Below, piece after piece: positions 39,244 to 52,372 of a stretch of 64,000 nucleotides of DNA. The position numbers and the translations under genes are program-made. The DNA comes from Saccharibacillus sacchari DSM 19268 (GTDB taxonomy: Bacteria > Bacillota > Bacilli > Paenibacillales > Paenibacillaceae). The first letter of the stretch is position 1, and the number at the start of each line of letters is the position of its first letter. The stretch lies in contig NZ_KK073875.1 in the NCBI RefSeq assembly GCF_000585395.1, positions 1,763,999-1,827,998 on the forward strand. Direction: 5' to 3'. The notes below the pieces were generated by a model. That model worked only from the letters and a program-made list of their open reading frames with translations. It made no database searches and was not told the DNA's origin.

Positions 39244-39268
39244 GAAATCCTCCATTTCTTGCCGAAAT

Positions 39269-39451
39269 CTATTTTTCCCAAAGCAGGATATTTGAATTTT
39301 TTAAAACCCGATCATTTCTTCCTTCCTTGAACACTTCTTTCAACGCCCGCTGCTCCATCGCTCCAAGCCCCGCAAACTGTAGTTGTCCCGATTGGAATTC
39401 GGCCCGAGCATTCTTATTTTGCATAAGCATCGCTATCGCTTCTTTCAACAT
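39269..39451 (-). CDS. comX: ComX-like prenylated pheromone precursor
   Basis: 60 residues: MLKEAIAMLMQNKNARAEF at the start and a C-terminal NSNILLWEK. ComX precursors of Bacillus are about 55-73 residues and carry the prenylated Trp near the C-terminus, third from the end in strain 168; here Trp is also third from the end. ACGGAGGTTGATCGGAA precedes the ATG. Position between comQ and comP, a ComA-like promoter just upstream and the ComQ-like prenyltransferase make the call strong although the sequence itself has diverged. ComQ should prenylate the Trp and a protease release roughly the last 6-10 residues. Confidence 0.88.
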   Translation of the reverse strand: MLKEAIAMLMQNKNARAEFQSGQLQFAGLGAMEQRALKEVFKEGRNDRVLKNSNILLWEK

Positions 39452-39693: not shown

Positions 39694-40611
39694 TCACATG
39701 CGAATCGTTTGATCCAATATCCGCTTGAATTCCGATTGGGCGGGCAGCGATTCGATCACGTCCAGACACCGATAATAAGCCAGTCGCATTCTTACCGAAG
39801 CATAGGCGAGCGCACCGGATTGTTCAAGCGCCTCCTCGAACTCGGTTGTCTTGGTTTTGACTTCGTCGTAGCTTAATTTTCCTTCGAAATACTCTGTTGC
39901 CCAATGATCTTCGCCCTCCAGATAATTCAGCAGCATCAAAACGGGCAGCGTGCGCTTGCGGTTCCAAAAGTCGTTTTTGCCTTCATGATTCGTAATATCC
40001 AGAATATCGTTCTTGATCTGGGCGGCTATGCCGAGCTGAAGCGCGAATTCCGCACTTTCGATCTTGGTTTCCCCGCAGCCGAGCAAGGTACCGAGTTGAA
40101 CGGCCATAACAAGCAAGGAGGCGGATTTCCCCGAAATCATCTCCATGTATTGTTCTTCGGTATAGACGGCATTCAAAAGGTCCGTCATTTGTCCGTTAAC
40201 GGTCGTAAGTAATTGAGCATTGAGCAGCGCGGCCGCTTCATATTTGCGTTCGGACGGAAAAGGGGCTTGCAGCAGCATCTGCTGAGCCAAAAACGAAAAT
40301 CCGAGCGCGATATTCAAGGCAAGATCGCTTCGAAATTTGCTCCACGGAGCCGATTCGTTATCTCCGTCTTGCAGATCATCGATCATGTCCAAAGACAGCA
40401 CCAAGGCTTCGACGGCAGCCGCCGCTTGCAAAATCCCGTCGCCTTCTCCGCCGTACATCCGATAGTGGAGAACAGTGAGATTGCCGAAAAGGGCTTTTTC
40501 CGACAACTTGTACGCCGCGCATTCCGCTGCCATGTCCCGAAGCTCGGCCTGGTTGAATCCTTGTTCGATCCCTTGCATCAAAGTTTGCTTAATCGCTTCA
40601 TTCCAATTCAA
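39694..40611 (-). CDS. comQ: ComQ-like isoprenyl transferase
   Basis: 305 residues of polyprenyl-synthetase fold. The first Asp-rich motif is LSLDMIDDLQDGD; the second region is KNDILDITNHEGKNDFWNRK. These, the length and the position next to comX match ComQ, which attaches a farnesyl or geranyl group to the ComX Trp. The TTG start follows AAGGAGAGAAACTCACG with a slightly long spacing. It is separated from comX by 242 bp containing the comX promoter, unlike B. subtilis where comQ and comX overlap. Confidence 0.9.
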   Translation of the reverse strand: MNWNEAIKQTLMQGIEQGFNQAELRDMAAECAAYKLSEKALFGNLTVLHYRMYGGEGDGILQAAAAVEALVLSLDMIDDLQDGDNESAPWSKFRSDLALNIALGFSFLAQQMLLQAPFPSERKYEAAALLNAQLLTTVNGQMTDLLNAVYTEEQYMEMISGKSASLLVMAVQLGTLLGCGETKIESAEFALQLGIAAQIKNDILDITNHEGKNDFWNRKRTLPVLMLLNYLEGEDHWATEYFEGKLSYDEVKTKTTEFEEALEQSGALAYASVRMRLAYYRCLDVIESLPAQSEFKRILDQTIRM

Positions 40612-40781: not shown

Positions 40782-41513
40782 TTAAGGTTTGTCGTACAGC
40801 ACGACAGCGGCGAGCGCAACTTCGTAAATCCCGTCCAACCCCAGCCATTCATTCACTCTGTCGTCATAAAACGTGGCAATCGGAGCCGTATCCGTTGTTG
40901 GAGGCGCGCAGCTCTGCACTTGTTTCGCCATTCTTCCCGCTTCCAGCAGACTATAGCGGTAGCCCCGTTCGCCGAGCAATTTATGCGAACGGTGCAAATT
41001 GGCAGCGACGAACCAGATCGCCCGCGGCGAGCCGCTCAGAAGTCCCGGCGGAAAAGCATCTTGCAACGAAATATTCCAAGGCCGGCCGCAGCACTTCAAC
41101 TCCCGCCCTTGCTCTTCGATGTGATAGCAAAGGTGCTGCCCTTCTTCGTTCCGGCAAACCATGTACAGCTCCAACTGATCGGGCTTGAATCCGGCAGTTT
41201 GCTCCAGCACGCGCATTTCCTCGAAAGGAACTTCAGAATGGGACGCCACGGTTCGGGCATAAGCGTCCAACCATTGTTTCAGATCCGGCGGGATGTCCGC
41301 TTCGCTCGACGGAATCGCCGGCGAACCGAAATAACGTTTGTCCGACGAAGCTTGACCGTTCAGGTGTCGAAACAGGTTGCCGAGCATTTTCATCCGAGAT
41401 CTCATTAACACGTCCAATTCGGGGTGATGGGCAGAACCGGCATGGTAGGTCAGCGAAAGACGTTCTTCATCCAGCTCGCGCTCGGATCTCCAATCGTTAA
41501 ATTTCAGACTCAT
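40782..41513 (-). CDS. SagB/McbC-like nitroreductase-fold protein (azoline dehydrogenase family, atypical)
   Basis: 243 residues from the ATG at 41513 (GAAAGGAGAATGCTTG before it). The C-terminal half fits the SagB/McbC family: GERGYRYSLLEAGRMAKQ, ATFYDDRVNEWLGLDGI and VALAAVVLYD. Active relatives carry a Lys-Tyr pair before the G-x-R-G-Y-R motif; here the aligned residues read Leu-Leu (SHKLLGERGYR), so oxidation of azolines to azoles is doubtful. The protein may be a structural partner of the YcaO complex or use another reaction. It is the last gene of the cluster, 12 bp after ycaO. Confidence 0.8.
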   Translation of the reverse strand: MSLKFNDWRSERELDEERLSLTYHAGSAHHPELDVLMRSRMKMLGNLFRHLNGQASSDKRYFGSPAIPSSEADIPPDLKQWLDAYARTVASHSEVPFEEMRVLEQTAGFKPDQLELYMVCRNEEGQHLCYHIEEQGRELKCCGRPWNISLQDAFPPGLLSGSPRAIWFVAANLHRSHKLLGERGYRYSLLEAGRMAKQVQSCAPPTTDTAPIATFYDDRVNEWLGLDGIYEVALAAVVLYDKP

Positions 41514-41527
41514 CAAGCATTCTCCTT

Positions 41528-42871
41528 TCAGGGAAAAGGGTGGGGCGCCGTATTCAAATCCGTCGGCGCGATCGGGAATGCGCGGTAACCCGTCCCGACC
41601 GGAACATCGAAAATGCGGCGGCTTCCGATCAGGCGTTCATGCTCGCTTCGCGGAAGCTGCACGGTTCCGGGGACGATCATTTTGACGACATGCAGCCCCA
41701 GCGCTCTCGCGTCTTCGGTCGTGACGTCCGCGCAGATCGCTTCCAATCCGCGCGCCGCAAGCCGGTCAAGCACCTGCTTCAACTGCTCGGCATGGGACGC
41801 CTTGCCGTCGATCGGGTTCGCGGCGAGCTTTCGCGTCTTGGGTGCGGCGCAGGCGAAATCAAGCTCGCGCATCGCGTTCGGCTGCTCGTAATAAGGCAGT
41901 CGCAGACCGTAATCGACAATCTGGTCCGCTTGCAGCTCGGGAAGTCCGGACGCGTAAATTTGCGCTTTGTTGCCCATGTACAGCTGGCTGATCTCCATCA
42001 GCGTCTTGGACGCGGCCTCCTCGAGCGTGCTGCGGGCGGCGCCGCCGAACGAGACCTTCCCGTCTCGGGTATGCAGCAGGCCGAAGACGGAAGGCACGCC
42101 GATATCCGAAGTCGTATCCACCAAATCAAGCCGGAAACGCCGTTCATCCATCAGCGCTTTGAACGGTTCCAACAGCGCGGATCCGTTCAAGTCGATCCCC
42201 GGCATCTGCAACCGGTTGTACCACATGATCATGAACGAATCGCGTTCGATGATCTCCAACAGCCCGCCGAGCATGGCTTGCTCCAGGGTCGAGCCGGCCG
42301 CGGAGCCGGTCATGAGGCCGAAGCAAATCGCGTCTTCGTTCGGAGCGATCGGCCGGTAAGAGTCCCAGGTCAGCGCGGCCGGCACGTAGACGTTCTTTCC
42401 ACGGGTCAGACTATATGCCTCGAACCATCCTATGCGGCTGTCTTCCGTAAACGGACGGTACGGGAATCCCGGCTTCGCGTGCTGCTCTTGCGTGAAAAGA
42501 GGAAGTTCGCTCGGATGCAGCGCATTCGCGCCCAACTCCCGCCGCGAAGCGAAGACCGTCCGATCGGGCTGCACGTAAGACGCGCAATAGCGTTCGACCG
42601 CTTCCGCGACGGCGGACGTATTCGCTTCTTCCGGCGTGCGTCCCATGCCGCTGGCAAAAAAGTCGATCAGCCCTTCCTGGCCCGGAACGAAGGCTTTGGG
42701 ATTGCCCGGAATAGCCAGACTCAAAAAAAGCTCGGGATCTTCCGCGTCGGAATTGATATTCATCAAGCCTTTCACGATCCCGCCCCGGCTGCCCAGCGTC
42801 GCGGCCAACGCTTTCGGCACGCCGGCGTCCGTTCCGACGGACGACGATCTGCGAACCAGTTGACGGCTCAT
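41528..42871 (-). CDS. YcaO-domain cyclodehydratase (RiPP, D-protein type)
   Basis: 447 residues from the ATG at 42871, which overlaps the E1-like gene by four bases (ATGA). The ATP-binding YcaO core is complete: GMGRTPEEANTSAVAEAVER with YCASYVQPDR, GSAAGSTLEQAMLGGLLEII followed by ERDSF, and SFGGAARSTLEEAASKTLME. It ends TAPHPFP, matching the proline-rich tail (PxPxP-like) required by azoline-forming YcaO proteins. Such enzymes activate backbone amides with ATP, usually to cyclise Cys, Ser or Thr. The likely substrates are the ten precursors at 46.5-48.2 kb. Confidence 0.93.
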   Translation of the reverse strand: MSRQLVRRSSSVGTDAGVPKALAATLGSRGGIVKGLMNINSDAEDPELFLSLAIPGNPKAFVPGQEGLIDFFASGMGRTPEEANTSAVAEAVERYCASYVQPDRTVFASRRELGANALHPSELPLFTQEQHAKPGFPYRPFTEDSRIGWFEAYSLTRGKNVYVPAALTWDSYRPIAPNEDAICFGLMTGSAAGSTLEQAMLGGLLEIIERDSFMIMWYNRLQMPGIDLNGSALLEPFKALMDERRFRLDLVDTTSDIGVPSVFGLLHTRDGKVSFGGAARSTLEEAASKTLMEISQLYMGNKAQIYASGLPELQADQIVDYGLRLPYYEQPNAMRELDFACAAPKTRKLAANPIDGKASHAEQLKQVLDRLAARGLEAICADVTTEDARALGLHVVKMIVPGTVQLPRSEHERLIGSRRIFDVPVGTGYRAFPIAPTDLNTAPHPFP

Positions 42872-43449
42872 GCGAGCACCGCCGCTTCGGTCCACGGCTG
42901 CGCGGCCAGCGAAGCCGATCGACGAACTCCGCATACGGTACAGGTCGGAACGCGATGCACCGCCGACAACTCGCCTTCGATATGGAACGCGTCGAATTCC
43001 AACAGATGCCCGAGCGTCAACGGCGCGAAGCTGCTTTTATGCCGGGAGGACCACTTCGCGACTTCAAGCGCGACGATGCCGGCAAAAATCTGCCAAGACA
43101 ATTCGAAGCCGGCTGCCGCCTCCGGAACATCGGGGCTGGCCAACGACGCCATGCGCCGCTTCAGGCATTCCCGGCAAGCGGTAACCCCGGGAATGACCAG
43201 CGGACCCACGCTTCCTCCAAGGCGATTGAAGCGCACCGGCAGCCAATTGAACGCTCGGTTATTCGCGATCTCGTTCCAGGCCGAAAGCCGTTCCTCGCTG
43301 CCGATCGCGATCATCAATTCGGGTACTTCGCGTACTTCGTCCGGGGACTGCGTCCATCGAACCGGCAGTCCCGCGATTTGAAGCATGCCGCCGATCTTTT
43401 CGGCTTTCGCCCGATCTTCTTCGGCGTGAAGAATCCAATATTCGCCCAT
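42868..43449 (-). CDS. Short E1-like leader-binding partner of YcaO (C-protein type)
   Basis: 193 residues, shorter than usual ocin-ThiF or SagC-like proteins. It holds VIPGVTACRECLKRRM and VPTCTVCGVRRS, two Cys-x-x-Cys pairs matching the zinc-binding ends of E1-like TOMM proteins, while the ATP-binding part of a real E1 enzyme is absent. In related systems this protein binds the leader peptide and presents it to YcaO. It is coupled to both neighbours: TGATG with the methyltransferase and ATGA with ycaO. Confidence 0.82.
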   Translation of the reverse strand: MGEYWILHAEEDRAKAEKIGGMLQIAGLPVRWTQSPDEVREVPELMIAIGSEERLSAWNEIANNRAFNWLPVRFNRLGGSVGPLVIPGVTACRECLKRRMASLASPDVPEAAAGFELSWQIFAGIVALEVAKWSSRHKSSFAPLTLGHLLEFDAFHIEGELSAVHRVPTCTVCGVRRSASLAAQPWTEAAVLA

Positions 43450-44270
43450 CAGCTCACCTTGCCTTTCTCAAGCACCAGGCAGCGCACGGGCGCCTGATCC
43501 GCGGGATAGGTATGCGTCTCGATCAGTTTCAAGGAAGAGCGATTCACGCAATCCAGAATTTGCGCTTCCGGGAAAAAGCTTTTGGACGTGGAACCGAAGT
43601 AACGGCGCGTGCTTCCGCCCTGCACCACTTCCGCGTAAAAGTTCATGACCGCTTTGCGGGAATCATGCTCTTCGTGCTCGCCCATCAATACGAACTGTTT
43701 ATGATCGGGACCGAGATCGATCGTAACGCCGTCCACTTTGCCGTCGCGCATTTCGCGGTTGTGCTCGCTGTTCTCGTAGACGTAGTCGAACACGAACCGC
43801 CCGCCTTCCTCCAGATGCGCGTAGACCGTTTCCAGCATTTTTTCCACCGAAGCCATATCCGGCAGCAGACTGACGCTTGTCGCCGACAACACGATCAACG
43901 GAAACTTTTCGGCTTGCGCAAACGAAGTCATGTCCGCTTGGCCGACTTCGATAAGGTCACGAACATTCTCCGGCAACCTAACGCTCTTGCGGCGGTACAA
44001 AGCCAGCATGTCCGGCGACAGATCCAAGCCGAGCGTCGAATGGCCGCGTCGGGCCAGTTGGATCAACACGCGCCCGGCACCGCAAGCCAGTTCCAGAATC
44101 CGTCCTTGGCCGCGCACCCGTTCCGCCTGCTCGGCCAGCAGTTCGACGTCGTACTCGGTCCGTTCCGTCAATGCTTCGTAGAACTCCGAGTAATACCCTT
44201 CATACAAGTCCATATCGTGACTGTCCGGCAGGTTCAGGCTGCGCAGCTCTTTGAAAATTCCGAAATACAT
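43449..44270 (-). CDS. Class I SAM-dependent methyltransferase
   Basis: 273 residues. Motif I ILELACGAGRVLIQLARRGH and the acidic end of beta-2 (TLGLDLSPDML), VGQADMTSF and the VFDYVYENSEHN region define a Rossmann methyltransferase of the Methyltransf_25 type. AAAGGGGAGAGGATT precedes the ATG at 44270. Its place immediately before the E1-like and YcaO genes suggests it methylates the peptide, perhaps the terminal carboxylate or the N-terminus; the site is not known. Confidence 0.9.
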   Translation of the reverse strand: MYFGIFKELRSLNLPDSHDMDLYEGYYSEFYEALTERTEYDVELLAEQAERVRGQGRILELACGAGRVLIQLARRGHSTLGLDLSPDMLALYRRKSVRLPENVRDLIEVGQADMTSFAQAEKFPLIVLSATSVSLLPDMASVEKMLETVYAHLEEGGRFVFDYVYENSEHNREMRDGKVDGVTIDLGPDHKQFVLMGEHEEHDSRKAVMNFYAEVVQGGSTRRYFGSTSKSFFPEAQILDCVNRSSLKLIETHTYPADQAPVRCLVLEKGKVS

Positions 44271-44313
44271 AATCCTCTCCCCTTTTCTTGTCGGTCTTAT
44301 AGAAATCCGGCCG

Positions 44314-45147
44314 TTAGGCGACCGTCCAGCCGCCGTCCACGATCAGATTATGTCCGGTGATCATGCCCGCTTGATCCGAAGCCAAGAACAGCACGGCTTC
44401 CGCAATGTCCGAAGGCACGGCAAGCTTGCGCAGCGGAATTTTCGGCAGGCTCATTCGGCGGAATCTCGGATCTTCCACGTGTTCGCGATTCGCTTCTGTA
44501 GCGACGAAAGTCGGCGACACGGCATTCACCCGGATTCCGTACTTGGCCCATTCCAGCGCCAATGCCTTGGTCAAATGAACAAGTCCCGCTTTGCTGGCGC
44601 AGTACGGCGCACGATTCTCGTTAGCGACCACGCCGTGTTGGGAAGCCAGCATGACGATCGAACCGCTTCGGCGTTTGACCATTCCTTTGGCGATCTGCTG
44701 AGTGAGGAAAAAAGTGCCCTTCAAGTTGATATCCATAATCTGATCCCACTGCTTCGGCGTGACTTCAAGCGCCGGTACCAGCATATTCACTCCGGCATTG
44801 TTCACCAGGTAATCAATGTCCAATCCGTCCGTTTTCAGTTTATTCGCACATTCGGTTATGGATTGGTCGCTGCGAATATCAAGCATGATTCCTTCGATTT
44901 CTTTTCCGTAGGTCTGCCGCAGTTCGCCAGCAACGTCATTCAGGCGTCCCATCTCGCCGGGAACTTCCGTGATGACGAGCGAGGCTCCTTCTCTGGCAAA
45001 ACTTTCGGCTATCTTGGCGCCGATCCCTCTGCCGGCTCCCGTCACGAGTACCCGCTTGCCGTTCAACCTTCCAACGCTCCGAACCGGCAAGTCGCCTTCT
45101 TGTTCTTGCGAATCCTCGAGCCCTATTTCAGCCGTATTCCGCTTCAT
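44314..45147 (-). CDS. Short-chain dehydrogenase/reductase (SDR)
   Basis: 277 residues: NAD(P) motif LVTGAGRGIGAKIAESF, NNAG in YLVNNAGVNML, catalytic Ser in IVMLASQHG and Tyr/Lys in APYCASKAGL. It is a classical SDR with a 30-residue Glu/Asp-rich N-terminal extension. AGGAGGGGAAAGG precedes the ATG. In the peptide cluster it could reduce a keto group made by the aminotransferase, which is inference. It lies between the M50 protease gene and the methyltransferase gene. Confidence 0.92.
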   Translation of the reverse strand: MKRNTAEIGLEDSQEQEGDLPVRSVGRLNGKRVLVTGAGRGIGAKIAESFAREGASLVITEVPGEMGRLNDVAGELRQTYGKEIEGIMLDIRSDQSITECANKLKTDGLDIDYLVNNAGVNMLVPALEVTPKQWDQIMDINLKGTFFLTQQIAKGMVKRRSGSIVMLASQHGVVANENRAPYCASKAGLVHLTKALALEWAKYGIRVNAVSPTFVATEANREHVEDPRFRRMSLPKIPLRKLAVPSDIAEAVLFLASDQAGMITGHNLIVDGGWTVA

Positions 45148-45185
45148 CCTTTCCCCTCCTGACTATTCATGGTTCCGAGCCGGAA

Positions 45186-46316
45186 TCAGACCGGCTCGCG
45201 CAGCGTCTTCCAGAACTTCATGGCATGCGCGGCCAGCATGGCGAGCAGAACCAAAGCGACTGCGTACGACGCGATGCCGATATAAGGTTGCAACCGATCG
45301 ATCAACTGATAGATGCCCCATCCCCAGAACAACGGAGTGAAAGCGGCGGCCGCGATGCCGTACAGCAACAGCACTCCCGTTTCGAAAGGACGTGCCGGCT
45401 TGCGATTAGTCTCTTTACCGGGAAGCAGCCAGCCGAAGATGTAACGAAACGCTTTCTGTCTGAGGTTGACGATCCCGAGCGAGTGGGACAGCATCCAATA
45501 TCCGTCCAATTTGACCAGCGGAATCAAATTCAGCAGGCTCATGCCCAAGTTGGCGACCGAGTAATAGAACAGCAGAGGCACTTCGATTCCCGCGTGCAGC
45601 AACCCGTAGAATGCGGCCGCGGATATTGCCGTCATCATCCATTGGCTGTAGATTCCGGCAAACAGAACGGCCAGTTTATGACGCTTCTTTTTGAACAGGT
45701 ACGTCGAGCTGACGTCGCAGAACATGGCCGGACCGAAGTAAAACAGCATCACTCCGGTCTCCGGAACGCTTCCGCCGTATTTCTTGCAGACCGCCGCATG
45801 GGACATTTCGTGAAAAGCGGTCGTCGCGACCATCATCAGATAAAGGATCAATGCTTCTTTGACGCCAAGTCCCGAAAGGGACAACCGGTTAATCAACCCG
45901 GGATCGGACATCATCATGTACAGCGCGCCCAGCATCAGCAGCGTATAAGCGCCGATCGCGACCGGGTGCAGCAGGACGCGGATCAAGCCGAGTCTTCGCT
46001 CCAGCCAGGCATCCGGATTGATGCGCAGAAGCTTGATCAGCGTCATGTCTTTTTTCTTGCCCGAAACTTCTGCGGCTTCCGCTTGAAGAAAGCCCCATTC
46101 TTCGAATTTGGCGGCCAGGTAACGTCTTTCGGGAGCGGTCAATTCTCCGGCATACAGACGTTCTCGCTCGCTTTCCTGCGGCTGGCTCAGCATGAGTTTT
46201 AAAAACTCCGCTTCCCGACGTCCGACTTTGATGTATTTGTTCAATGATTTATGTTTAATCGTAAAAGAATTATTTTCAGATTCATGAAATTCGATAAAAT
46301 CCGCTGTTTGACTCAA
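45186..46316 (-). CDS. PqqD-like/M50 membrane metalloprotease of the RiPP cluster
   Basis: 376 residues. Residues 1-80 resemble a PqqD-type leader-recognition element: KYIKVGRREAEFLKLML and a closing YLAAKFEEWGFL. The rest is a multi-helix M50 protein with zinc motif HEMSH, GPAMFCDV and LVKLDGYWMLSHSLG. It probably cuts leaders within or at the membrane during export, or transports the product. The TTG start follows GAAGGTGATGAACA. It is the first gene after the precursor array and the terminator-like hairpin at 46405-46451. Confidence 0.85.
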   Translation of the reverse strand: MSQTADFIEFHESENNSFTIKHKSLNKYIKVGRREAEFLKLMLSQPQESERERLYAGELTAPERRYLAAKFEEWGFLQAEAAEVSGKKKDMTLIKLLRINPDAWLERRLGLIRVLLHPVAIGAYTLLMLGALYMMMSDPGLINRLSLSGLGVKEALILYLMMVATTAFHEMSHAAVCKKYGGSVPETGVMLFYFGPAMFCDVSSTYLFKKKRHKLAVLFAGIYSQWMMTAISAAAFYGLLHAGIEVPLLFYYSVANLGMSLLNLIPLVKLDGYWMLSHSLGIVNLRQKAFRYIFGWLLPGKETNRKPARPFETGVLLLYGIAAAAFTPLFWGWGIYQLIDRLQPYIGIASYAVALVLLAMLAAHAMKFWKTLREPV

Positions 46317-46394
46317 TGTTCATCACCTTCGCTCTTTGGAATAGATGCGCGATTCGCATTCCTTTGCCGATGCTGCATTTTCGGGGAAACGGTT

Positions 46395-46451
46395 GAAAAA
46401 GAACGGGGCTTTCCGCCGTACGGCTGCCGCTGATGCGGCGGAATAAGCCCC
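46395..46451 (-). terminator. Hairpin terminator between precursor array and maturation genes
   Basis: On the minus strand GGGGCTTATTCCGCCG pairs with CGGCGGAAAGCCCC and GTTCTTTTTC follows. The hairpin is strong, yet the next gene has no clear promoter, so partial read-through is likely; this would give more precursor mRNA than enzyme mRNA. Confidence 0.75.
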
Positions 46452-46499
46452 CTATGTCCTGCACGATCCTGCGTTAATGAAAGCCGAATGTATTTGCGG

Positions 46500-46637
46500 T
46501 TAAGTGAAAGCGACCAATCCTGCTCCGACGGCTACGACGCCTACTCCGGCAATAACGCCTTCCACGAAGTCTCTCGAACTTCCCGGCGCTTCGACGTTCT
46601 CCAACAGTTCCAGATCCAGTGCGCATGTTTCGTTCAT
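46500..46637 (-). CDS. RiPP precursor peptide A3 (family A)
   Basis: 45 residues, with GAGGAGGAATTTTAAA before the ATG. Leader MNETCALDLELLENVEAP, then core GSSRDFVEGVIAG, VGVVAVGAG and the end LVAFT. Same protein sequence as A2, with silent differences. The only Cys is in the leader. The glycine spacing (G-x3-G) and hydrophobic run suggest a membrane-active helix. It is the last of ten tandem precursors. Confidence 0.85.
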   Translation of the reverse strand: MNETCALDLELLENVEAPGSSRDFVEGVIAGVGVVAVGAGLVAFT

Positions 46638-46723
46638 TTTAAAATTCCTCCTCGTTGGTTGTTTTTCAAATTTGGGTTACGAGTATTTCCGACCTTGCAT
46701 CTTGCGTTTGTCAAAAATACTCT

Positions 46724-46849
46724 TTACGTAAAAGCGATCAGACCGCCGCCCACGATGACGCCCACGACTACTCCGCCGGCGAACGCTCCGCTCACGGGCG
46801 CCGCGATCTCTTCCAGTTCTTCCAATTGCACGCTCAACACGTTTTCCAT
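46724..46849 (-). CDS. RiPP precursor peptide B3 (family B)
   Basis: 41 residues. Leader MENVLSVQLEELEEIAAP, core VSGAFAGGVVVG then VIVGGGLIAFT. This is the most diverged B copy: the junction reads Ala-Pro-Val-Ser rather than Ala-Pro-Gly-Asp. AGGAGCGATAAACG precedes the ATG. Ends with the shared Phe-Thr. Confidence 0.85.
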   Translation of the reverse strand: MENVLSVQLEELEEIAAPVSGAFAGGVVVGVIVGGGLIAFT

Positions 46850-46878
46850 CGTTTATCGCTCCTTTCGGCTTCGGTTTT

Positions 46879-47004
46879 TTAAGTCAGGGCTACGATTACG
46901 CCGCCGACGACGATTCCCGTGCCGAAAGCGGTCCCGATTTCTTGCCAGCCCGGCGCATCCATAGCTTCCAGTTCTTCGACGATCAGATTCTTGTTTTGTT
47001 CCAT
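46879..47004 (-). CDS. RiPP precursor peptide C2 (family C)
   Basis: 41 residues. Leader MEQNKNLIVEELEAMDAP, core GWQEIGTAFGTGIV then VGGVIVALT. Differs from C1 by one residue (Thr for Ala in the core). AAAGGAGCGATTGAAC precedes the ATG. Starts the second copy of a tandem C-B-A unit. Confidence 0.85.
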   Translation of the reverse strand: MEQNKNLIVEELEAMDAPGWQEIGTAFGTGIVVGGVIVALT

Positions 47005-47056
47005 GTTCAATCGCTCCTTTTGGGTTTGGTTTTTTATTGGTTTTTTATTCGACGAC

Positions 47057-47194
47057 TTAAGTAAAAGCGACCAGGCCTGCTCCGACGGCTACGACGCCTA
47101 CTCCCGCAATGACGCCTTCCACGAAATCTCTCGAACTTCCCGGGGCCTCGACGTTTTCCAACAGTTCCAAATCCAGTGCGCATGTTTCGTTCAT
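47057..47194 (-). CDS. RiPP precursor peptide A2 (family A)
   Basis: 45 residues, protein identical to A3 (MNETCALDLELLENVEAP leader, GSSRDFVEGVIAG core start, LVAFT end). GAGGAGGAATTTTAAA precedes the ATG. Ends the first C-B-A unit. Confidence 0.85.
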   Translation of the reverse strand: MNETCALDLELLENVEAPGSSRDFVEGVIAGVGVVAVGAGLVAFT

Positions 47195-47242
47195 TTTAAA
47201 ATTCCTCCTCGTTTAAATGGTTTTGTTTTGCGAAAAGCATTC

Positions 47243-47368
47243 TTACGTAAAAGCGATCAAGCCGCCGCCCACGATTACGCCTACGATCACGCCGCCCACG
47301 AACGCTCCGTCTCCCGGCGCCGCTACCTCTTCCAGTTCTTCCAGTTGTACATTCAGCATATTTTCCAT
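47243..47368 (-). CDS. RiPP precursor peptide B2 (family B)
   Basis: 41 residues. Leader MENMLNVQLEELEEVAAP, core GDGAFVGGVIVG then VIVGGGLIAFT. Core identical to B1; leader differs in two or three residues. AAAGGAGCGATTAATC precedes the ATG. Confidence 0.85.
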   Translation of the reverse strand: MENMLNVQLEELEEVAAPGDGAFVGGVIVGVIVGGGLIAFT

Positions 47369-47440
47369 GATTAATCGCTCCTTTGATTGAATTTGGTTTT
47401 TGAGTATTGCGAGTGTTAGTTGAAAAGAAACGCGAAATCT

Positions 47441-47566
47441 TTAAGTCAGGGCGACGATTACGCCGCCGACGACGATGCCCGCACCGAAAGCGGTCCCAAT
47501 TTCCTGCCAACCCGGCGCATCCATAGCTTCCAGTTCTTCGACGATCAGATTCTTGTTTTGTTCCAT
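47441..47566 (-). CDS. RiPP precursor peptide C1 (family C)
   Basis: 41 residues. Leader MEQNKNLIVEELEAMDAP, core GWQEIGTAFGAGIV then VGGVIVALT. AAAGGAGCGATTAAAA precedes the ATG. The core contains Trp, Gln and two Thr, setting it apart from A and B. Confidence 0.85.
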   Translation of the reverse strand: MEQNKNLIVEELEAMDAPGWQEIGTAFGAGIVVGGVIVALT

Positions 47567-47607
47567 TTTTAATCGCTCCTTTTAGGTTTGTTTTTTTAAA
47601 AGAAAGT

Positions 47608-47733
47608 TTACGTAAAAGCGATCAGGCCGCCGCCTACGATCACGCCTACAATCACGCCGCCCACGAACGCTCCGTCTCCCGGCGCCGCTACTTCTTCAAG
47701 TTCTTCCATCTGTACGTTCAACAAATTTTCCAT
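47608..47733 (-). CDS. RiPP precursor peptide B1 (family B)
   Basis: 41 residues. Leader MENLLNVQMEELEEVAAP, core GDGAFVGGVIVG then VIVGGGLIAFT. AAAGGAGAGATTAACG precedes the ATG. No Cys or Ser; the only Thr is the last residue. Confidence 0.85.
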   Translation of the reverse strand: MENLLNVQMEELEEVAAPGDGAFVGGVIVGVIVGGGLIAFT

Positions 47734-47754
47734 CGTTAATCTCTCCTTTGGGTT

Positions 47755-47892
47755 TTAAGTTAAGGCAACCAATCCTGCTCCGACGCCCACAATGCCTACT
47801 CCGGCGATGACGCCCGTCACGAAATCCCGTGCGCTTCCCGGCGCTTCCACGTTCTCCAACAGTTCCAGATCGAGTGCTTGTTGTTCGTTCAT
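47755..47892 (-). CDS. RiPP precursor peptide A1 (family A)
   Basis: 45 residues. Leader MNEQQALDLELLENVEAP, core GSARDFVTGVIAG, VGIVGVGAG and the end LVALT. GAGGAGGAATATGAAA precedes the ATG at 47892; an ATG two codons earlier is too close to that site. This copy lacks the leader Cys of A2 and A3 and is the likely ancestor or sister of them. Confidence 0.85.
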   Translation of the reverse strand: MNEQQALDLELLENVEAPGSARDFVTGVIAGVGIVGVGAGLVALT

Positions 47893-47940
47893 TTTCATAT
47901 TCCTCCTCAGGGTTTATCGAGCATATGCCTTACTTTGAAC

Positions 47941-48093
47941 TTAGGTAAGAGCGACGAGAATTCCGCCTGCCACGCTTCCCAGACCCGGGAAAGGGATTCC
48001 GGAAGGGAACGGCATCAGGGTTTCGGGAGCCGAATAGATAGGGGCCACCACATTTTCCAACAGCTCGATGTCCAACGCTTGCAGTTTTTTCAT
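47941..48093 (-). CDS. RiPP precursor peptide D (single copy)
   Basis: 50 residues. Leader MKKLQALDIELLENVVAP, core IYSAPETLMPFPSGIPF, then PGLGSVAGGILVALT. The leader clearly belongs with family A, but the core starts Ile-Tyr and carries a Pro-rich stretch. GAGGAGGAATAGGAAA precedes the ATG. Confidence 0.82.
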   Translation of the reverse strand: MKKLQALDIELLENVVAPIYSAPETLMPFPSGIPFPGLGSVAGGILVALT

Positions 48094-48114
48094 TTTCCTA
48101 TTCCTCCTCGAATA

Positions 48115-48237
48115 TTAGGTCAGGGAGATCAATCCGCCGACAATTACGCCTATGATCGGTCCGCCTATGTACATGCCGCCTGCCGGCGCCGTTACGGCTT
48201 CCAACTCTTCGGCTTTTACGCTCCAAGCTTTTTCCAT
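48115..48237 (-). CDS. RiPP precursor peptide E (single copy)
   Basis: 40 residues. Leader MEKAWSVKAEELEAVTAP, core AGGMYIGGPIIGV then IVGGLISLT. AAGGAGGTGAGGAAC precedes the ATG. First precursor in transcription order; it ends Leu-Thr like the others and is closest to family B in its leader. Confidence 0.82.
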   Translation of the reverse strand: MEKAWSVKAEELEAVTAPAGGMYIGGPIIGVIVGGLISLT

Positions 48238-48296
48238 GTTCCTCACCTCCTTCACGAAATAAACTCTTTCAAGACTCTTGGATATCCGGAAATGGA

Positions 48297-48395
48297 TTAG
48301 AACAACACGGCCTCGTTAAGCGGCTCGTCGCCGGGATATTCGCCGCCGAAAAGCGTCGTTTCTTTCAAAGGATCGAACGAATAGTCACGCTGCAT
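48297..48395 (-). CDS. 32-residue acidic mini-protein in the RiPP operon
   Basis: The ATG at 48395 follows GGAGGCAGGTGAGAAGC, and the gene fits the 100-bp gap between the aminotransferase stop and the precursor array. Sequence runs MQRDYSFDPLKETTLFGGEY and ends PLNEAVLF. It lacks the ELE-Ala-Pro leader and C-terminal Thr of the precursors, so it is more likely an accessory peptide or chaperone than a substrate, though a different class of precursor is possible. Too small to assign a family. Confidence 0.6.
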   Translation of the reverse strand: MQRDYSFDPLKETTLFGGEYPGDEPLNEAVLF

Positions 48396-48400
48396 GCTTC

Positions 48401-49720
48401 TCACCTGCCTCCCAGCGTTTTCTTGATGATACCGACGATCTTCGATACTTCCTGAGCGGAGACGACGAACGGAGGATAGAGATGGAATCCCGTCGTGACG
48501 CCCGGCGTATAGAACGGATACACGATCAATCCCCGCTGCTTCAGCCGGCCGACCAAGGCGGAAAGACGCTCGGCCTCCATGCAAACGCCGCCCGCCAGAT
48601 CGTCTTGCAGCGCAACGCCCGTCATCAAGCCTTTGCCGCGCGTTTCCAAAAAGGCCGGGCAATCCGCAAGTTCTTCGTTCAAAAGTTCGCGCAGCAATTC
48701 TCCCATCTCGGAAACATGTTCCAGCATGCCCGGTTGATTCAAAGCTTCAATCGTCGCCAATCCGGCTGCACAGGCAATCGGATTGCCATTTTGCGTAGAC
48801 AAATGCTCGATATGCAGATTGGCGGCCGCGAATTCGCGGTAGATCGCTTCGCTGAACAGGACGGCTCCAAGCGGCAAATACCCGCTGTTAATGCCTTTGG
48901 ACAAACAAAGGATATCCGGTACGGCGCCGCTGTGTTCGAAAGCGAACATTCGGCCCGTTCTGCCCATTCCCGTCGCGACTTCGTCAAAAGCAAGGAGCGC
49001 GCCGTGCAGGTCGCACAGCTCCCGAATTTTTCGCAAAAACGCATCCGGCAGAGGAATCGTTCCGCCCGAGCCGATAATCGGCTCAACAATCATTCCGGCA
49101 ATCCGGTCTCCTTCACGTTCAAACAACTCTTCAATCGCGCGCAGTTCTTCGTCTTCGCTGCCTCGCCCCAAGCTGCTGAGCGGCGTATCGTGGAACAGGA
49201 ATCCCGGTACCTTCGGACCGTAACCCTGCGAAATCTCCCTGTCGATCCCGCTTGCGCTCATCGCTCCGTAATACGTGCCGTGGTAGGAAATGCTTAGCGC
49301 CACGATATTTTGCTTTTGCTCCAGCCCGCGCAGGCTCTGGTATTTGCGCATCAGCTTGATCGCCAACTCGGCCGATTCCGAACCGGTGCAGGTGTAGATC
49401 GCCCGGGATAGGCGCTCCGGCGTCAGGGCCAACAGCTCTTGCGCGAATTTGACCGTGGTCGGATTGGTCTGATCGACCAGGTTCACGAACGGAATTCGGT
49501 CGAGTTGTTCGAGGATCGCCTGCCGAATGCCGGGGTGTCCGTACCCGAGCGATACATTCCATAGACCGCTGATTCCGTCGATATAAGGCTTTCCGTTCTC
49601 GTCGCGAACATAGATGCCCGATCCTTCAAGCAGAGAAGTGAACGATTCGCCCAACTGAACGTTTTTTAGCGGGTGGATCAGCGGATAGACCGCCTTTTGC
49701 GCATTTTGCAACGTAGACAT
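48401..49720 (-). CDS. PLP-dependent class III aminotransferase
   Basis: 439 residues from the ATG at 49720 (AAAAGGAGAATCGGCT before it). Features: TCTGSESAELAIKLMRKYQS, ISYHGTYYGAMSASG, LLAFDEVATGMGRTGRMF and the PLP lysine in LCLSKGINSGYLPLGAV. The fold is that of omega- or acetylornithine-type aminotransferases. In a peptide cluster it might convert an aldehyde or keto group on the product to an amine, or supply a small building block. It sits 26 bp after the large maturase gene and shares its transcript. Confidence 0.92.
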   Translation of the reverse strand: MSTLQNAQKAVYPLIHPLKNVQLGESFTSLLEGSGIYVRDENGKPYIDGISGLWNVSLGYGHPGIRQAILEQLDRIPFVNLVDQTNPTTVKFAQELLALTPERLSRAIYTCTGSESAELAIKLMRKYQSLRGLEQKQNIVALSISYHGTYYGAMSASGIDREISQGYGPKVPGFLFHDTPLSSLGRGSEDEELRAIEELFEREGDRIAGMIVEPIIGSGGTIPLPDAFLRKIRELCDLHGALLAFDEVATGMGRTGRMFAFEHSGAVPDILCLSKGINSGYLPLGAVLFSEAIYREFAAANLHIEHLSTQNGNPIACAAGLATIEALNQPGMLEHVSEMGELLRELLNEELADCPAFLETRGKGLMTGVALQDDLAGGVCMEAERLSALVGRLKQRGLIVYPFYTPGVTTGFHLYPPFVVSAQEVSKIVGIIKKTLGGR

Positions 49721-49746
49721 AGCCGATTCTCCTTTTATTTTATGCT

Positions 49747-52146
49747 TTAAGAAGCTCTGCGCGAAGCGGGCAAGATGCCCATTTCGTCCAGCTTGAGACC
49801 CACCTGGCGCGCTGCCGTTTCGGCTTGCGCTTCGTCGGCTTTGAACACTTCGGAAATCGCGCGTCTGAGCGATATTTCGGACAACCCTTTGATCCCCGCT
49901 TCCAGCACCAAGGCCATCAGCGGACTCAGTTTCAGCAGTTTCCCTCCGTTCGCCTGGTAAAGCAGCGGTTGATCGCCGACGAACAGAACAAACAGATGGT
50001 CCGGTACCCATGCGTCGCCTTCGCTCGGATAGGAAGCGGGCAGTACATGCGTGCAGGTTCGCAGCGACACGCCGATTTCGCGGATATCGACATCGCGGAA
50101 TGCCGCCGTATATTGACGCAGTCCTTTGAGCAATTGCGCGACCTGCATATAGCGGTGCAGCAGTACATGGCGCTTGCGAAGATCGCAGTATTGGTTTCGG
50201 GTCATGTATTCCGGCAAAAAGGTGCATTTGGAGCAGGTGTCGCGGATTTCGCAGCCGTCGCAGCCGCGCAGCAGTTGTTCGCGCGTGGAGATTGCCGCCG
50301 CTTCGCGCTGCAGCGCGTCATAAGAATCTCCGATTCGGCCGATGGCGGAGCACCCTCCGCAGCCGGAAACTTTGCCGTCGGCTTCCGTGTACAGGCGCGG
50401 AAGCTGCTTGATCGGGCATTGTCCGGCAGCCGACCATCGACAACTGTCCGCGACATACCCTTGCACCTGATAGCCTCGGAGGAATCGGCCTTCGCGCTCG
50501 AAAGCTTCTACGTCTTCCATGAAAGCATCCAGGTCGGCGGGTTGGACAAGCTGCAAAATCTCCAAACCTTGTCCGTTCGCAGTCTCCTTATCGGCCGGCT
50601 CAGAAGCTTCCCGATAATTCGTCAGTCCGATCTCGACCGGAGATCCGAAATCAAATTCGCTCATCTCCAAACGCATCATTCGGTCATCGGCACTGAGAAT
50701 TTCCGCATGAACGTGAGGGACGTACTGCCGCTGCCGCTCTAGTTCATGATCGATAGGCCCGTACCATTCCCGAGACTGCTTGACGACTCCCTCCATATCG
50801 ATATATTTTTCTTCCTTTTCCGATTTGCAAACTGAGTTTTTATTTAGAATGAAGGCGCTGTTGACTCCCATCAACTGATCCGGCTCCAACCCTGCAAGAC
50901 CTGCCGCATGCTCCTCGGACACTCCGACGTGCTTCACTCCGCTTCCGAGTGCTTGCGGCGGATATTGACCCGTTTTGAAGGCCAGATAACCGTTCAGCAA
51001 AGCCGGATCGCTGCCGCCCGTCGAAGCCGATAACAGGTCTGCCATTTCGGCATGGAGCTCCGTTCGTCCCGGACCTTTCACGCGAACGTTCAAGTCTCCC
51101 TGCCCGATCAAACCGGCAGTCAACCAATCCCGGAGCGCAGACGCCGTTTCCTGTTCGGGCGAGACCGTTTTTTCGTCCAGTGTTATTCTAAGCTTTGCAC
51201 CGGCCTTGCCTTTTTTCCAATCGGCCAGTCGATTTCTCACCTCGGACGAACGGAGAGAGCCGGAATCCGTTACCACGAGTTCAAGCGTCGCAAGGCTCAG
51301 GGCTTCCAACCGTTCAGGCTCGATCCAACCCAACTGCTCGGGACTCAAAGCAATCTCGAATCCCGCCCCGGTTGCATGCTGCTCCAAAACGCCAAGCCCT
51401 TGAAGAAGTCGTTGCGGCGACGGCTCAAGCTCAAAGCCTTCCACGACCATTGGCGAGTAGGCTCCGCAGTTCGCTTCTTGCTGAAGCTCTTGGGCGAATC
51501 GGCTTGCGGAATGCCGTCGCAGTCCGTTGCTTTGCGAAGTTTCGCCTTGAAGATCGGCCCAACGAACCGTACATCCCGAACCTTTGGCCGCATCCGGCGA
51601 ACTTAAACGATCCAGCAGGCACATGTCTGGTTCGATTCCGGCTTGCGGATCCGAAAAGGCTTCTTGGTGCGTGTCTTCGAAATCAACTTCGCCTGCAAGC
51701 TTTAAGCCCGGTTCGCTTCGCCAGCTTTCTTTGTCCGATTCGGACAATCTCCATAGCCGGCTTTCGGGCTCGGCCAGAACAAAAGCATCCGCGCCCGCAT
51801 CCGCCGGGTCCGTATCCCGAAGCGTTCCGACCCACTCTCCGAACCAGACGATTCGGATATCGGGGTCCAATCGTTTCAGCGTTCTGCATAACCCCCGGCA
51901 AAGCGAGTAGGTCTGCGGTTCGACTTCGAAGGCGACAACGGCGCTTCCGAACGATTCGATCTCTTCGGCGCAATCCTGAAGCGTTCCCAAGCTTGCTTCG
52001 ATGTACTGCGCGGCGTTGCCGCCCCGGCTTTTGAAATGCGCTCTTATGTATCTGCAGTTCAGGCTGTCACCGGCTGTGTACAGTCTGGACGACTGGGCTT
52101 TAAAATGAATAAGCGTAATGCCTTCTCCGTAAGTGAATCCGTACAA
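49747..52146 (-). CDS. Large cysteine-rich RiPP maturase with B12-like N-terminus and PqqD-like C-terminus
   Basis: About 799 residues from the TTG at 52146 (TTAAGGAGGCGAAGCAA before it). A longer frame begins with ATGATG at 52263, but those codons overlap the -10 element of the conserved promoter, so they should not be in the mRNA. Residues about 45-135 (SFGSAVVAFEVEPQTYSLCR, then LDPDIRIVWFGEW) resemble a cobalamin-binding Rossmann domain. The middle is TIM-barrel-like, but I find no radical-SAM CxxxCxxC. Residues about 610-690 are SPASM-like with many Cys (CGGCSAIGR, CDGCEIRDTCSKCTFLPEYM). The last 90 are PqqD-like (GGKLLKLSPLMALVLEAG). Exact chemistry is unknown. Confidence 0.75.
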   Translation of the reverse strand: MYGFTYGEGITLIHFKAQSSRLYTAGDSLNCRYIRAHFKSRGGNAAQYIEASLGTLQDCAEEIESFGSAVVAFEVEPQTYSLCRGLCRTLKRLDPDIRIVWFGEWVGTLRDTDPADAGADAFVLAEPESRLWRLSESDKESWRSEPGLKLAGEVDFEDTHQEAFSDPQAGIEPDMCLLDRLSSPDAAKGSGCTVRWADLQGETSQSNGLRRHSASRFAQELQQEANCGAYSPMVVEGFELEPSPQRLLQGLGVLEQHATGAGFEIALSPEQLGWIEPERLEALSLATLELVVTDSGSLRSSEVRNRLADWKKGKAGAKLRITLDEKTVSPEQETASALRDWLTAGLIGQGDLNVRVKGPGRTELHAEMADLLSASTGGSDPALLNGYLAFKTGQYPPQALGSGVKHVGVSEEHAAGLAGLEPDQLMGVNSAFILNKNSVCKSEKEEKYIDMEGVVKQSREWYGPIDHELERQRQYVPHVHAEILSADDRMMRLEMSEFDFGSPVEIGLTNYREASEPADKETANGQGLEILQLVQPADLDAFMEDVEAFEREGRFLRGYQVQGYVADSCRWSAAGQCPIKQLPRLYTEADGKVSGCGGCSAIGRIGDSYDALQREAAAISTREQLLRGCDGCEIRDTCSKCTFLPEYMTRNQYCDLRKRHVLLHRYMQVAQLLKGLRQYTAAFRDVDIREIGVSLRTCTHVLPASYPSEGDAWVPDHLFVLFVGDQPLLYQANGGKLLKLSPLMALVLEAGIKGLSEISLRRAISEVFKADEAQAETAARQVGLKLDEMGILPASRRAS

Positions 52147-52254
52147 TTGCTTCGCCTCCTTAACCATCGGCTGTGATTCGTCCTCACCTGAGCGCTGCGG
52201 CTTGCTCGGCGGCGTTCCGTTTCGGTGCGGCGTGTCTGTGTTCCTTTTGCTTGA

Positions 52255-52372
52255 TTTCATCATAAACCAGTTTCAAAAGGATTTCACCGAAAAGAATGTA
52301 AGGTTTTCCCACAAATGCTTTGCGCTGTATTCAGCCTATATTTGCGGTTTTTGCGCGGCTCCGCAAGTTGCG
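52255..52372 (-). promoter_or_regulatory. ComA-like regulated promoter of the RiPP maturase operon
   Basis: On the minus strand: TTGCGGAGCCGCGCAA, ACCGCAAATA, GCGCAAAGCATTTGTGGGAA, then TGGTTTATGATGAAATCAAGC. The last piece aligns with TGGTATAGTGAAATCAAGC of the 36.1-kb promoter, and the box-to-(-10) distance is 46 bases against 48 in the other two. The match is weaker than between the comX and ABC promoters. The long gap to the M50 gene holds only this and a terminator. Confidence 0.6.

What the first reader, a model, noticed from the sequence alone, without database searches (positions are those of the whole stretch)
40782..52372. Quorum-sensing-linked YcaO RiPP cluster with ten precursors and no Cys-rich core
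Seen: a YcaO enzyme with PHPFP tail, E1-like partner, SagB-like protein, methyltransferase, SDR, PqqD-M50 protease, aminotransferase, B12/SPASM-like maturase and ten precursor genes on one strand. Known: YcaO D-proteins with E1-like partners normally modify Cys/Ser/Thr-rich cores (TOMMs). Here cores are Gly/Val/Ile-rich with almost no Cys or Ser, so the cluster does not fit the LAP, thiopeptide, bottromycin or thioamide classes as I know them. Inference: a new YcaO-dependent class of hydrophobic, probably membrane-active peptide.
Basis: partly seen in the sequence, partly recalled or inferred. Interest (0 to 1): 0.95.

Follow-up and report, generated by a model that had tools for sequence, protein, structure and literature searches.

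The report
Quorum-linked YcaO daptide gene cluster
A bacterium close to Saccharibacillus carries, beside a complete comQXPA cell-density signalling locus, a gene cluster of the already known daptide class: ten small hydrophobic peptides plus enzymes predicted to turn the last amino acid of each into a positively charged ring, which would likely help the peptides act on membranes.

Summary
The gene list is real, but the cluster is not a new class. It is a Bacillota-type daptide cluster: methyltransferase, aminotransferase and intramembrane protease pass curated daptide cut-offs, 8 of 10 precursors pass the daptide precursor cut-off, and all ten end in Leu-Thr or Phe-Thr. YcaO enzymes in daptide clusters are published; in two actinobacterial ones they close a C-terminal imidazoline (PMC12338566), so no Cys-rich core is needed. 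Cores from clusters with a YcaO end in Leu/Phe-Thr far more often (53 of 59) than those without (2 of 23), with exceptions. Less explored: in 12 of 12 sampled Paenibacillales daptide genomes the YcaO comes with an E1-like protein (here lacking most of its N-terminal, leader-binding part) and a SagB-like protein lacking the catalytic tyrosine; DapB has a B12/radical-SAM fold without CxxxCxxC; and comQ adjoins the cluster in 10 of the 12. The helpers' functions are inferred. New variant of a known kind; moderate interest.

The parts
46500..46637 (-). daptide precursor A10, core GSSRDFVEGVIAGVGVVAVGAGLVAFT
   Evidence: NF041808 39.5 bits, cut-off 25; same peptide as A7
46724..46849 (-). daptide precursor A9, core VSGAFAGGVVVGVIVGGGLIAFT
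   Evidence: NF041808 31.3 bits
46879..47004 (-). daptide precursor A8, core GWQEIGTAFGTGIVVGGVIVALT
   Evidence: NF041808 38.1 bits
47057..47194 (-). daptide precursor A7, identical to A10
   Evidence: NF041808 39.5 bits
47243..47368 (-). daptide precursor A6, core GDGAFVGGVIVGVIVGGGLIAFT
   Evidence: NF041808 38.1 bits
47441..47566 (-). daptide precursor A5, core GWQEIGTAFGAGIVVGGVIVALT
   Evidence: NF041808 37.3 bits
47608..47733 (-). daptide precursor A4, core same as A6
   Evidence: NF041808 39.2 bits
47755..47898 (-). daptide precursor A3, core GSARDFVTGVIAGVGIVGVGAGLVALT
   Evidence: NF041808 39.7 bits
47941..48093 (-). divergent daptide precursor A2, Pro-rich core ending VALT
   Evidence: no NCBIfam match; leader LLENVVAP and terminal Thr by sight; same gene in L001
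48115..48237 (-). divergent daptide precursor A1, core AGGMYIGGPIIGVIVGGLISLT
   Evidence: below cut-off; leader LEAVTAP, terminal Thr; similar genes in L001, L016, L020
48401..49723 (-). DapD, class-III aminotransferase
   Evidence: NF041821 522.1 bits, cut-off 450
49747..52146 (-). DapB-type leader-binding partner: B12/radical-SAM-like fold without CxxxCxxC, nine-Cys SPASM-like module, C-terminal RRE (upstream ATG at 52263 also open)
   Evidence: fold search and VIA, Cys pattern, NF041823 47.2 bits, under its cut-off of 150, start site
45186..46316 (-). DapP, intramembrane metalloprotease that would remove the leader
   Evidence: NF041824 428.9 bits, cut-off 300
44314..45147 (-). DapC, SDR oxidoreductase, predicted oxidative decarboxylase of the C-terminal Thr
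   Evidence: PF13561 220 bits; PF13561 is the Bacillota DapC type in PMC10036551
43449..44270 (-). DapM, N-methyltransferase
   Evidence: NF041820 209.7 bits, cut-off 175
42868..43449 (-). E1-like YcaO partner, short of most of the N-terminal (RRE) part
   Evidence: TIGR03882 44.7 bits; residues 39-177 align to 110-253 of a 263-aa E1-like protein
41528..42871 (-). YcaO, SagD type, C-terminus PHPFP; predicted C-terminal imidazoline former
   Evidence: TIGR03604 303.2 bits, cut-off 219.25; aligned with TruD, MusD and LynD
40782..41513 (-). SagB-like protein, predicted not to be a competent flavin dehydrogenase
   Evidence: nitroreductase fold near BmdC, ThcOx and McbC; catalytic Tyr replaced in 10 of 10
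39694..40611 (-). ComQ, prenyltransferase
   Evidence: PF00348 74.4 bits; adjacent in 10 of 12 sampled daptide genomes
39269..39451 (-). ComX pre-pheromone ending NILLWEK
   Evidence: PF05952 34.0 bits, cut-off 25; sequence
36913..39255 (-). ComP-like sensor kinase
   Evidence: PF07730 and PF02518 over cut-off; next to ComX
36260..36916 (-). ComA-like LuxR-type response regulator
   Evidence: PF00072 and PF00196 over cut-off
53664..54962 (-). ABC transporter permease, likely export or immunity (DapT-like)
   Evidence: PF12698; homologues lie inside the Paenibacillus clusters
54959..55855 (-). ABC transporter ATPase, partner of 53664-54962
   Evidence: PF00005
52351..52366 (-). ComA-box-like palindrome upstream of dapB (consensus recalled, suggestive only)
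   Evidence: 1 mismatch (reported there as a + strand match); also in L001 and L016, not in L020 and most Paenibacillus loci

Best explanation
The cluster encodes a Bacillota-type daptide pathway in which ten precursor peptides ending in Leu-Thr or Phe-Thr are predicted to have that terminal Thr decarboxylated, aminated and N-methylated and then likely closed by the YcaO enzyme into a C-terminal imidazoline. Inferred order, by analogy with the reconstituted actinobacterial pathway: DapB binds the leader through its C-terminal RRE and presents the C-terminus to DapC (SDR), which makes an aminoacetone end; DapD transfers an amine; DapM adds one methyl; the YcaO, placed by the E1-like partner, uses ATP to join that amine to the carbonyl of the penultimate Leu or Phe. 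The SagB-like protein is predicted to have lost flavin chemistry and would serve as a structural partner, so the ring would stay an imidazoline. DapP would cut after AP and the ABC transporter would export a peptide with charge at both ends. The comQXPA locus beside the operon likely ties production to cell density. Shown here: families, fold similarities of predicted models, conservation, the Leu/Phe-Thr signature and ComX. Inferred: every chemical step, the helper roles and the regulation.
Against: No product or expression data. By BLAST the window YcaO is closer to seven of twelve other YcaOs taken from these genomes (96.7-150 bits; the other five 35.4-42.7) than to the seven actinobacterial daptide-linked YcaOs (28.9-57.8 bits); the tree neither supports nor rejects a common clade of the daptide YcaOs (p-AU 0.415), so the imidazoline function is carried over from possibly non-orthologous enzymes. 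The Leu/Phe signature fails in two actinobacterial YcaO-bearing clusters (0 of 4 cores, L063 and L067), in one core of L074, in Massilia (its four precursors end in IT or VT) and in L061 (Leu without any YcaO in the genome); L065 has one Leu core of two. The SagB-like gene is kept in 12 of 12 genomes with many invariant residues, so it does something, possibly redox. DapB scores under the curated cut-off of NF041823 and its model is of modest confidence (pLDDT 62.0, pTM 0.47). The ComA-box-like site is absent from one Saccharibacillus locus (L020) and from most Paenibacillus loci.
Confidence: 0.66

Rival explanations
1. Same daptide pathway, but the SagB-like protein is an active flavin enzyme that oxidises the imidazoline to an aromatic C-terminal imidazole.
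For: Its predicted nitroreductase fold is nearest to, among others, the azoline oxidases BmdC, ThcOx and McbC; it is kept in 12 of 12 genomes beside the YcaO and keeps an Arg aligned with the last Arg of the RSxR motif of two LAP dehydrogenases. Azoline dehydrogenase is listed among daptide cluster genes in PMC10036551.
Against: The general-base Tyr (BmdC Tyr260) is Phe or Leu in 10 of 10, the column before it Leu in 10 of 10, and the RRS/TRS phosphate motif seen in two LAP dehydrogenases (L104, L105) is absent. TIGR03605 score is 25.4 against 78.4.
Confidence: 0.15
2. The YcaO modifies the peptide backbone inside the core (azoline on Ser/Thr, thioamide, or N-terminal macrolactamidine) and the C-terminus ends as plain Dmp.
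For: The YcaO and E1-like protein score as TOMM types (TIGR03604, TIGR03882), and BLAST places the YcaO nearer to several other YcaOs; PMC12338566 says that some daptide YcaOs were annotated as azoline-forming, thiopeptide-associated. Ser occurs in 6 and internal Thr in 4 of the ten window cores.
Against: No Cys; no Ser or Thr position shared by all cores; A4 and A6 have none at all. It leaves the Leu/Phe-Thr ends unexplained.
Confidence: 0.13
3. A categorically new YcaO-dependent RiPP class.
For: Exact enzyme combination not found in the main texts that I could read.
Against: Three equivalog-level daptide enzymes and eight precursors over curated cut-offs; published daptide clusters with YcaO.
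Confidence: 0.02

Closest known systems
Daptides of Bacillota (Ren et al. 2023, PMC10036551)
   Same: Several short precursors with an ELExMEAP-like leader motif, hydrophobic core and C-terminal Thr; DapB/C/D/M/P and ABC transporter; SDR-type DapC; more than ten precursors in some clusters.
   Different: That paper characterises an actinobacterial cluster without YcaO. E1-like proteins and ComX are not named in its main text, azoline dehydrogenase only in a figure legend; its supplementary list could not be read and may contain this or a sister cluster.
DapY pathway to C-terminal 3,4-dimethylimidazoline, T. fusca and S. azureus (PMC12338566, PMC12670281)
   Same: YcaO with PxPxP end acting in a daptide cluster whose cores share only the terminal Thr; Leu-Thr terminus.
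   Different: Orthology unresolved.
Micrococcin TclI-TclJ-TclN and microcin McbBCD azole machinery (PMC10634744, passages)
   Same: E1-like/ocin-ThiF scaffold, YcaO cyclodehydratase and SagB-type dehydrogenase work together.
   Different: There TclI carries an RRE and the dehydrogenase is active on a Cys-rich core; here the E1-like protein is short, the catalytic Tyr is missing and there is no Cys.
B12-dependent radical SAM enzymes (TokK, TsrM, OxsB)
   Different: No CxxxCxxC in 12 of 12 sequences; extra SPASM-like Cys module and RRE.
comQXPA of Bacillus subtilis (PMC4008528, passages)
   Same: Gene order, ComX over the Pfam cut-off, Trp near the C-terminus with variable tail.
   Different: Sits beside a RiPP operon; control of that operon is not shown.

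Membership tests
Daptides (RiPP class) | Several precursors with conserved leader motif before AP and invariant C-terminal Thr | tested here: met
   10 of 10 end in Thr; 8 of 10 over NF041808 cut-off
Daptides (RiPP class) | Aminotransferase DapD | tested here: met
   NF041821 522.1 bits against 450
Daptides (RiPP class) | Methyltransferase DapM and protease DapP | tested here: met
   NF041820 209.7/175 and NF041824 428.9/300
Daptides (RiPP class) | NAD(P)-dependent oxidoreductase DapC (PF13561 in Bacillota) | tested here: met
   PF13561 220 bits
Daptides (RiPP class) | DapB with C-terminal RRE | tested here: met
Daptides (RiPP class) | Amine-modified C-terminus (Dmp or derivative) in the product | not testable with these tools
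   needs mass spectrometry
DapY-type imidazoline-forming YcaO | YcaO with PxPxP C-terminus in a daptide cluster | tested here: met
   PHPFP
DapY-type imidazoline-forming YcaO | Common descent with actinobacterial daptide YcaOs | tested here: inconclusive
   low BLAST scores; one clade not rejected, p-AU 0.415, long branch
DapY-type imidazoline-forming YcaO | Imidazoline product | not testable with these tools
   needs reconstitution
LAP/TOMM with azole formation | Cys/Ser/Thr-rich core | tested here: not met
   0 Cys; two precursors (A4 and A6, one core) without any internal Ser/Thr
SagB azoline dehydrogenase | Curated family score | tested here: not met
   25.4 bits against 78.4
SagB azoline dehydrogenase | Lys-Tyr before GxRGYR and RRS flavin-phosphate motif | tested here: not met
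   Tyr column Phe/Leu in 10 of 10, against Lys-Tyr in 30 of 59 domain rows from 30 members over the cut-off; RRS/TRS of L104 and L105 absent
Radical SAM enzyme (DapB) | CxxxCxxC | tested here: not met
   0 of 12
comQXPA | ComQ, ComX with Trp near the C-terminus, ComP, ComA in order | tested here: met
comQXPA | Prenylated pheromone controls the neighbouring operon | not testable with these tools
   needs expression assays

The most novel reading that the evidence does not exclude
Paenibacillales assembled a second imidazoline-forming daptide machine from parts of an azole synthetase: a SagD-type YcaO retargeted from Cys/Ser to a C-terminal amine, held by an E1-like protein that has shed its leader-binding domain and a SagB-like protein that has shed its flavin chemistry, with leader binding handed over to a dead B12-radical-SAM/SPASM protein (DapB). 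The peptides are made on command of a rapidly diversifying ComX pheromone, so that clones of one pherotype arm together.
Probability: 0.3. Interest if true: 0.62.

Novelty: new variant of a known kind. Interest (0 to 1): 0.45.

Why it matters
It turns an apparent new class into a testable variant of a known one, and gives a candidate sequence rule (penultimate Leu/Phe before the terminal Thr) for where a YcaO acts in daptides. If the helper proteins really are former enzymes reused as scaffolds, the cluster shows how azole machinery can be retargeted to a peptide's C-terminus. The ComX locus gives a possible handle, a pheromone, to switch on a silent cluster.

Tried and rejected
Tried without result: tRNA scan (0); plasmid search with DapD (none at 1e-90) and with the E1-like protein (2 distant hits); DapB against PDB sequences (one match at E 0.28, taken as chance). 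Class-level survey of 398 Bacilli genomes: 7 with a DapP match at E<=1e-20, 2 over cut-off (the window's own and G059, already in hand); the five other loci (L080-L084) showed no other daptide gene and were dropped. Literature: no paper of the library holds 'azoline dehydrogenase', FMN, lysine, tyrosine and YcaO together; 'daptide' with 'quorum sensing' gives 3 papers: in PMC10036551 'quorum' occurs once, in a reference title; the other two were seen in the listing only. PMC4603692 (passages) was not used. Supplementary files could not be read.

Considered and rejected: imidazole as the main product (SagB motif loss); DapB as a radical maturase (no CxxxCxxC); a firm claim of separate origin of the YcaO lineages (not supported by the AU test); a ComA box as evidence of control (the pattern is recalled; 3 matches in the window against 6.5 expected at up to 2 mismatches; best site with 1 mismatch, as good in 0.7-2% of background stretches in the window, L001 and L016, which are close relatives; 2 mismatches in L007, equalled in 0 of 150 background stretches; 3 in L003 and L006; 4 in L004, L005, L018, L020, L022).

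Errors found on the way: I first counted Massilia L008 as YcaO-free because tblastn with the window YcaO missed it; the PF02624 hit L059 lies inside L008, so the counts are replaced by those. In some searches precursor A1 was given two residues short; the full form has no NCBIfam match at 0.01. The 30 'canonical' domains were picked by the KY motif itself, so the KY claim rests. In one search I translated the wrong frame of L009; the ORF read looks by sight like a glycosyltransferase, and the DapB of L009 was not identified. From, 8 distinct ORFs not ending in Thr (3, 3 and 2 per set) were dropped from the counts; its pattern misses the two divergent precursors A1 and A2 of the window (both end in LT), their relatives, three of the four Massilia precursors and one of the two of L061. 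L078 (cut contig) and L027 (no daptide-like precursor recognised) were not counted; in L027's genome (G017) a YcaO lies about 11 kb from the daptide-like genes and was not followed up. L068 is counted as YcaO-free although its genome has YcaOs on another contig.
Full report
What is there. The region 40782-52146 of the minus strand holds, in order of transcription, dapB, dapD, ten precursor genes, dapP, dapC, dapM, an E1-like gene, a ycaO gene and a sagB-like gene. NCBIfam equivalog models identify DapM (209.7 bits, cut-off 175), DapP (428.9, 300) and DapD (522.1, 450); 8 of 10 precursors pass the daptide precursor model. The SDR is of the PF13561 type, the DapC type of Bacillota according to PMC10036551. 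The host is close to Saccharibacillus: S. endophyticus CCM 8702 carries the same cluster, its proteins from DapB to SagB and ComQ at 96.9-99.3% identity; the window's own genome is a single 6.08-Mb contig without a name.

Why the missing Cys is no puzzle. YcaO enzymes in daptide clusters are published (PMC10036551; outline, sections 4, 6, 10, 11 and passages seen). In two actinobacterial clusters the YcaO closes a C-terminal imidazoline from the amine that the pathway builds on the terminal Thr and the carbonyl of the residue before it (PMC12338566; abstract, section 5 part 1 of 3, sections 9 and 14 and passages seen; journal version PMC12670281, passages). The ten cores here have no Cys, Ser in 6 and internal Thr in 4, and no such residue in common but the terminal Thr.

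A sequence test of where the YcaO acts. I compared distinct Thr-ended cores from clusters with and without a YcaO near by. Leu or Phe precedes the terminal Thr in 42 of 42 cores of 13 Paenibacillales clusters, 11 of 16 of seven actinobacterial clusters with YcaO and 0 of 1 of Massilia (0 of 4 if its four precursors are all taken), against 2 of 23 from 13 clusters without YcaO near by. Fisher p is 3.3e-12 for all, 6.2e-11 with all four Massilia precursors, 1.4e-4 inside Actinomycetota and 9.4e-6 by locus (18 of 21 vs 1 of 13; L065, a tie, counted as no). Related cores are not independent, so p is only a guide. Exceptions: L063 and L067 (YcaO, no Leu), one core of L074, L061 (Leu, no YcaO), one core of L065, Massilia. 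Absence of a near YcaO was checked with PF02624 in the genomes concerned.

The YcaO lineage. The enzyme is over the SagD-family cut-off, keeps PHPFP and aligns with TruD, MusD and LynD. BLAST puts it nearer to seven of twelve other YcaOs from these genomes than to the seven actinobacterial daptide-linked YcaOs (one of the seven nearer ones, L095, lies about 11 kb from daptide-like genes of G017), but a tree of 32 rows does not reject one clade of the Paenibacillales and actinobacterial daptide YcaOs (p-AU 0.415). Common or separate origin is open.

Quorum sensing. ComQ (PF00348), ComX (PF05952 34.0 bits, cut-off 25), a HisKA_3 kinase and a LuxR-type regulator follow directly. ComQ adjoins the cluster in 10 of the 12 genomes above (no match in the fetched stretches of G133 and G241) and in P. 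ihuae. An ORF with Trp in the last ten residues and a shared head lies between ComQ and ComP in the window and in 8 of 9 other loci examined; the ninth, L018, is cut by the end of the locus. Its tail differs sharply between the window (NILLWEK) and S. endophyticus (LAAWGVV), and ComP is 90.5% identical where ComQ is 97.7% and ComA 100%, the pattern expected of diverging pherotypes. Control of the daptide operon is inferred from position only. In the text seen of the two daptide papers and in the search listings I found no mention of this link.

Verdict. A known class with a published chemical precedent; new here, as far as the readable text shows, are the conserved set of helpers that look like former enzymes, the pheromone linkage and the end-of-core rule. 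The published supplementary lists may already contain the cluster.

Noticed in passing
window 48297-48395 (-): A 32-residue ORF (MQRDYSFDPLKETTLFGGEYPGDEPLNEAVLF) between dapD and the first precursor, with relatives in three other Saccharibacillus loci (L001, L016, L020), without leader motif or terminal Thr.
   Followed up: partly
L003 8879-8977 and 9209-9307; L006 8718-8804; L018 from 8034: Short Pro/Ile-rich ORFs (such as MMGIWPIIIGPVIPLLPVIPPITIIDPITKLF) interleaved with the Paenibacillus daptide precursors, lacking leader motif and terminal Thr; possibly a second peptide type or immunity peptides.
   Followed up: no
window 33709-35897 (-) and 53664-55855 (-): Two paralogous ABC-2 transporters (70% and 82% identical for permease and ATPase) flank the com-dap region on both sides; in the Paenibacillus loci a homologue sits inside the cluster.
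   Followed up: partly
window 52500-53618 (-): A second M50 metalloprotease upstream of dapB, matched only in Saccharibacillus loci among those searched; relation to the cluster unknown.
   Followed up: no
L008 4540-5862 (+), Massilia sp. ST3: A pseudomonadotal daptide-like cluster with a YcaO that lacks PxPxP and is nearest to the QGKG-type YcaOs of the actinobacterial set; a different YcaO chemistry may be at work there.
   Followed up: partly
L027 and L095 (G017): DapB/DapD/DapC homologues without DapM or DapP matches and a YcaO about 11 kb away in another genus of the family; may be a daptide hybrid.
   Followed up: no
L025 (G241): Daptide cluster with several frameshifted genes (matches split over frames), apparently decaying or poorly sequenced.
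   Followed up: no
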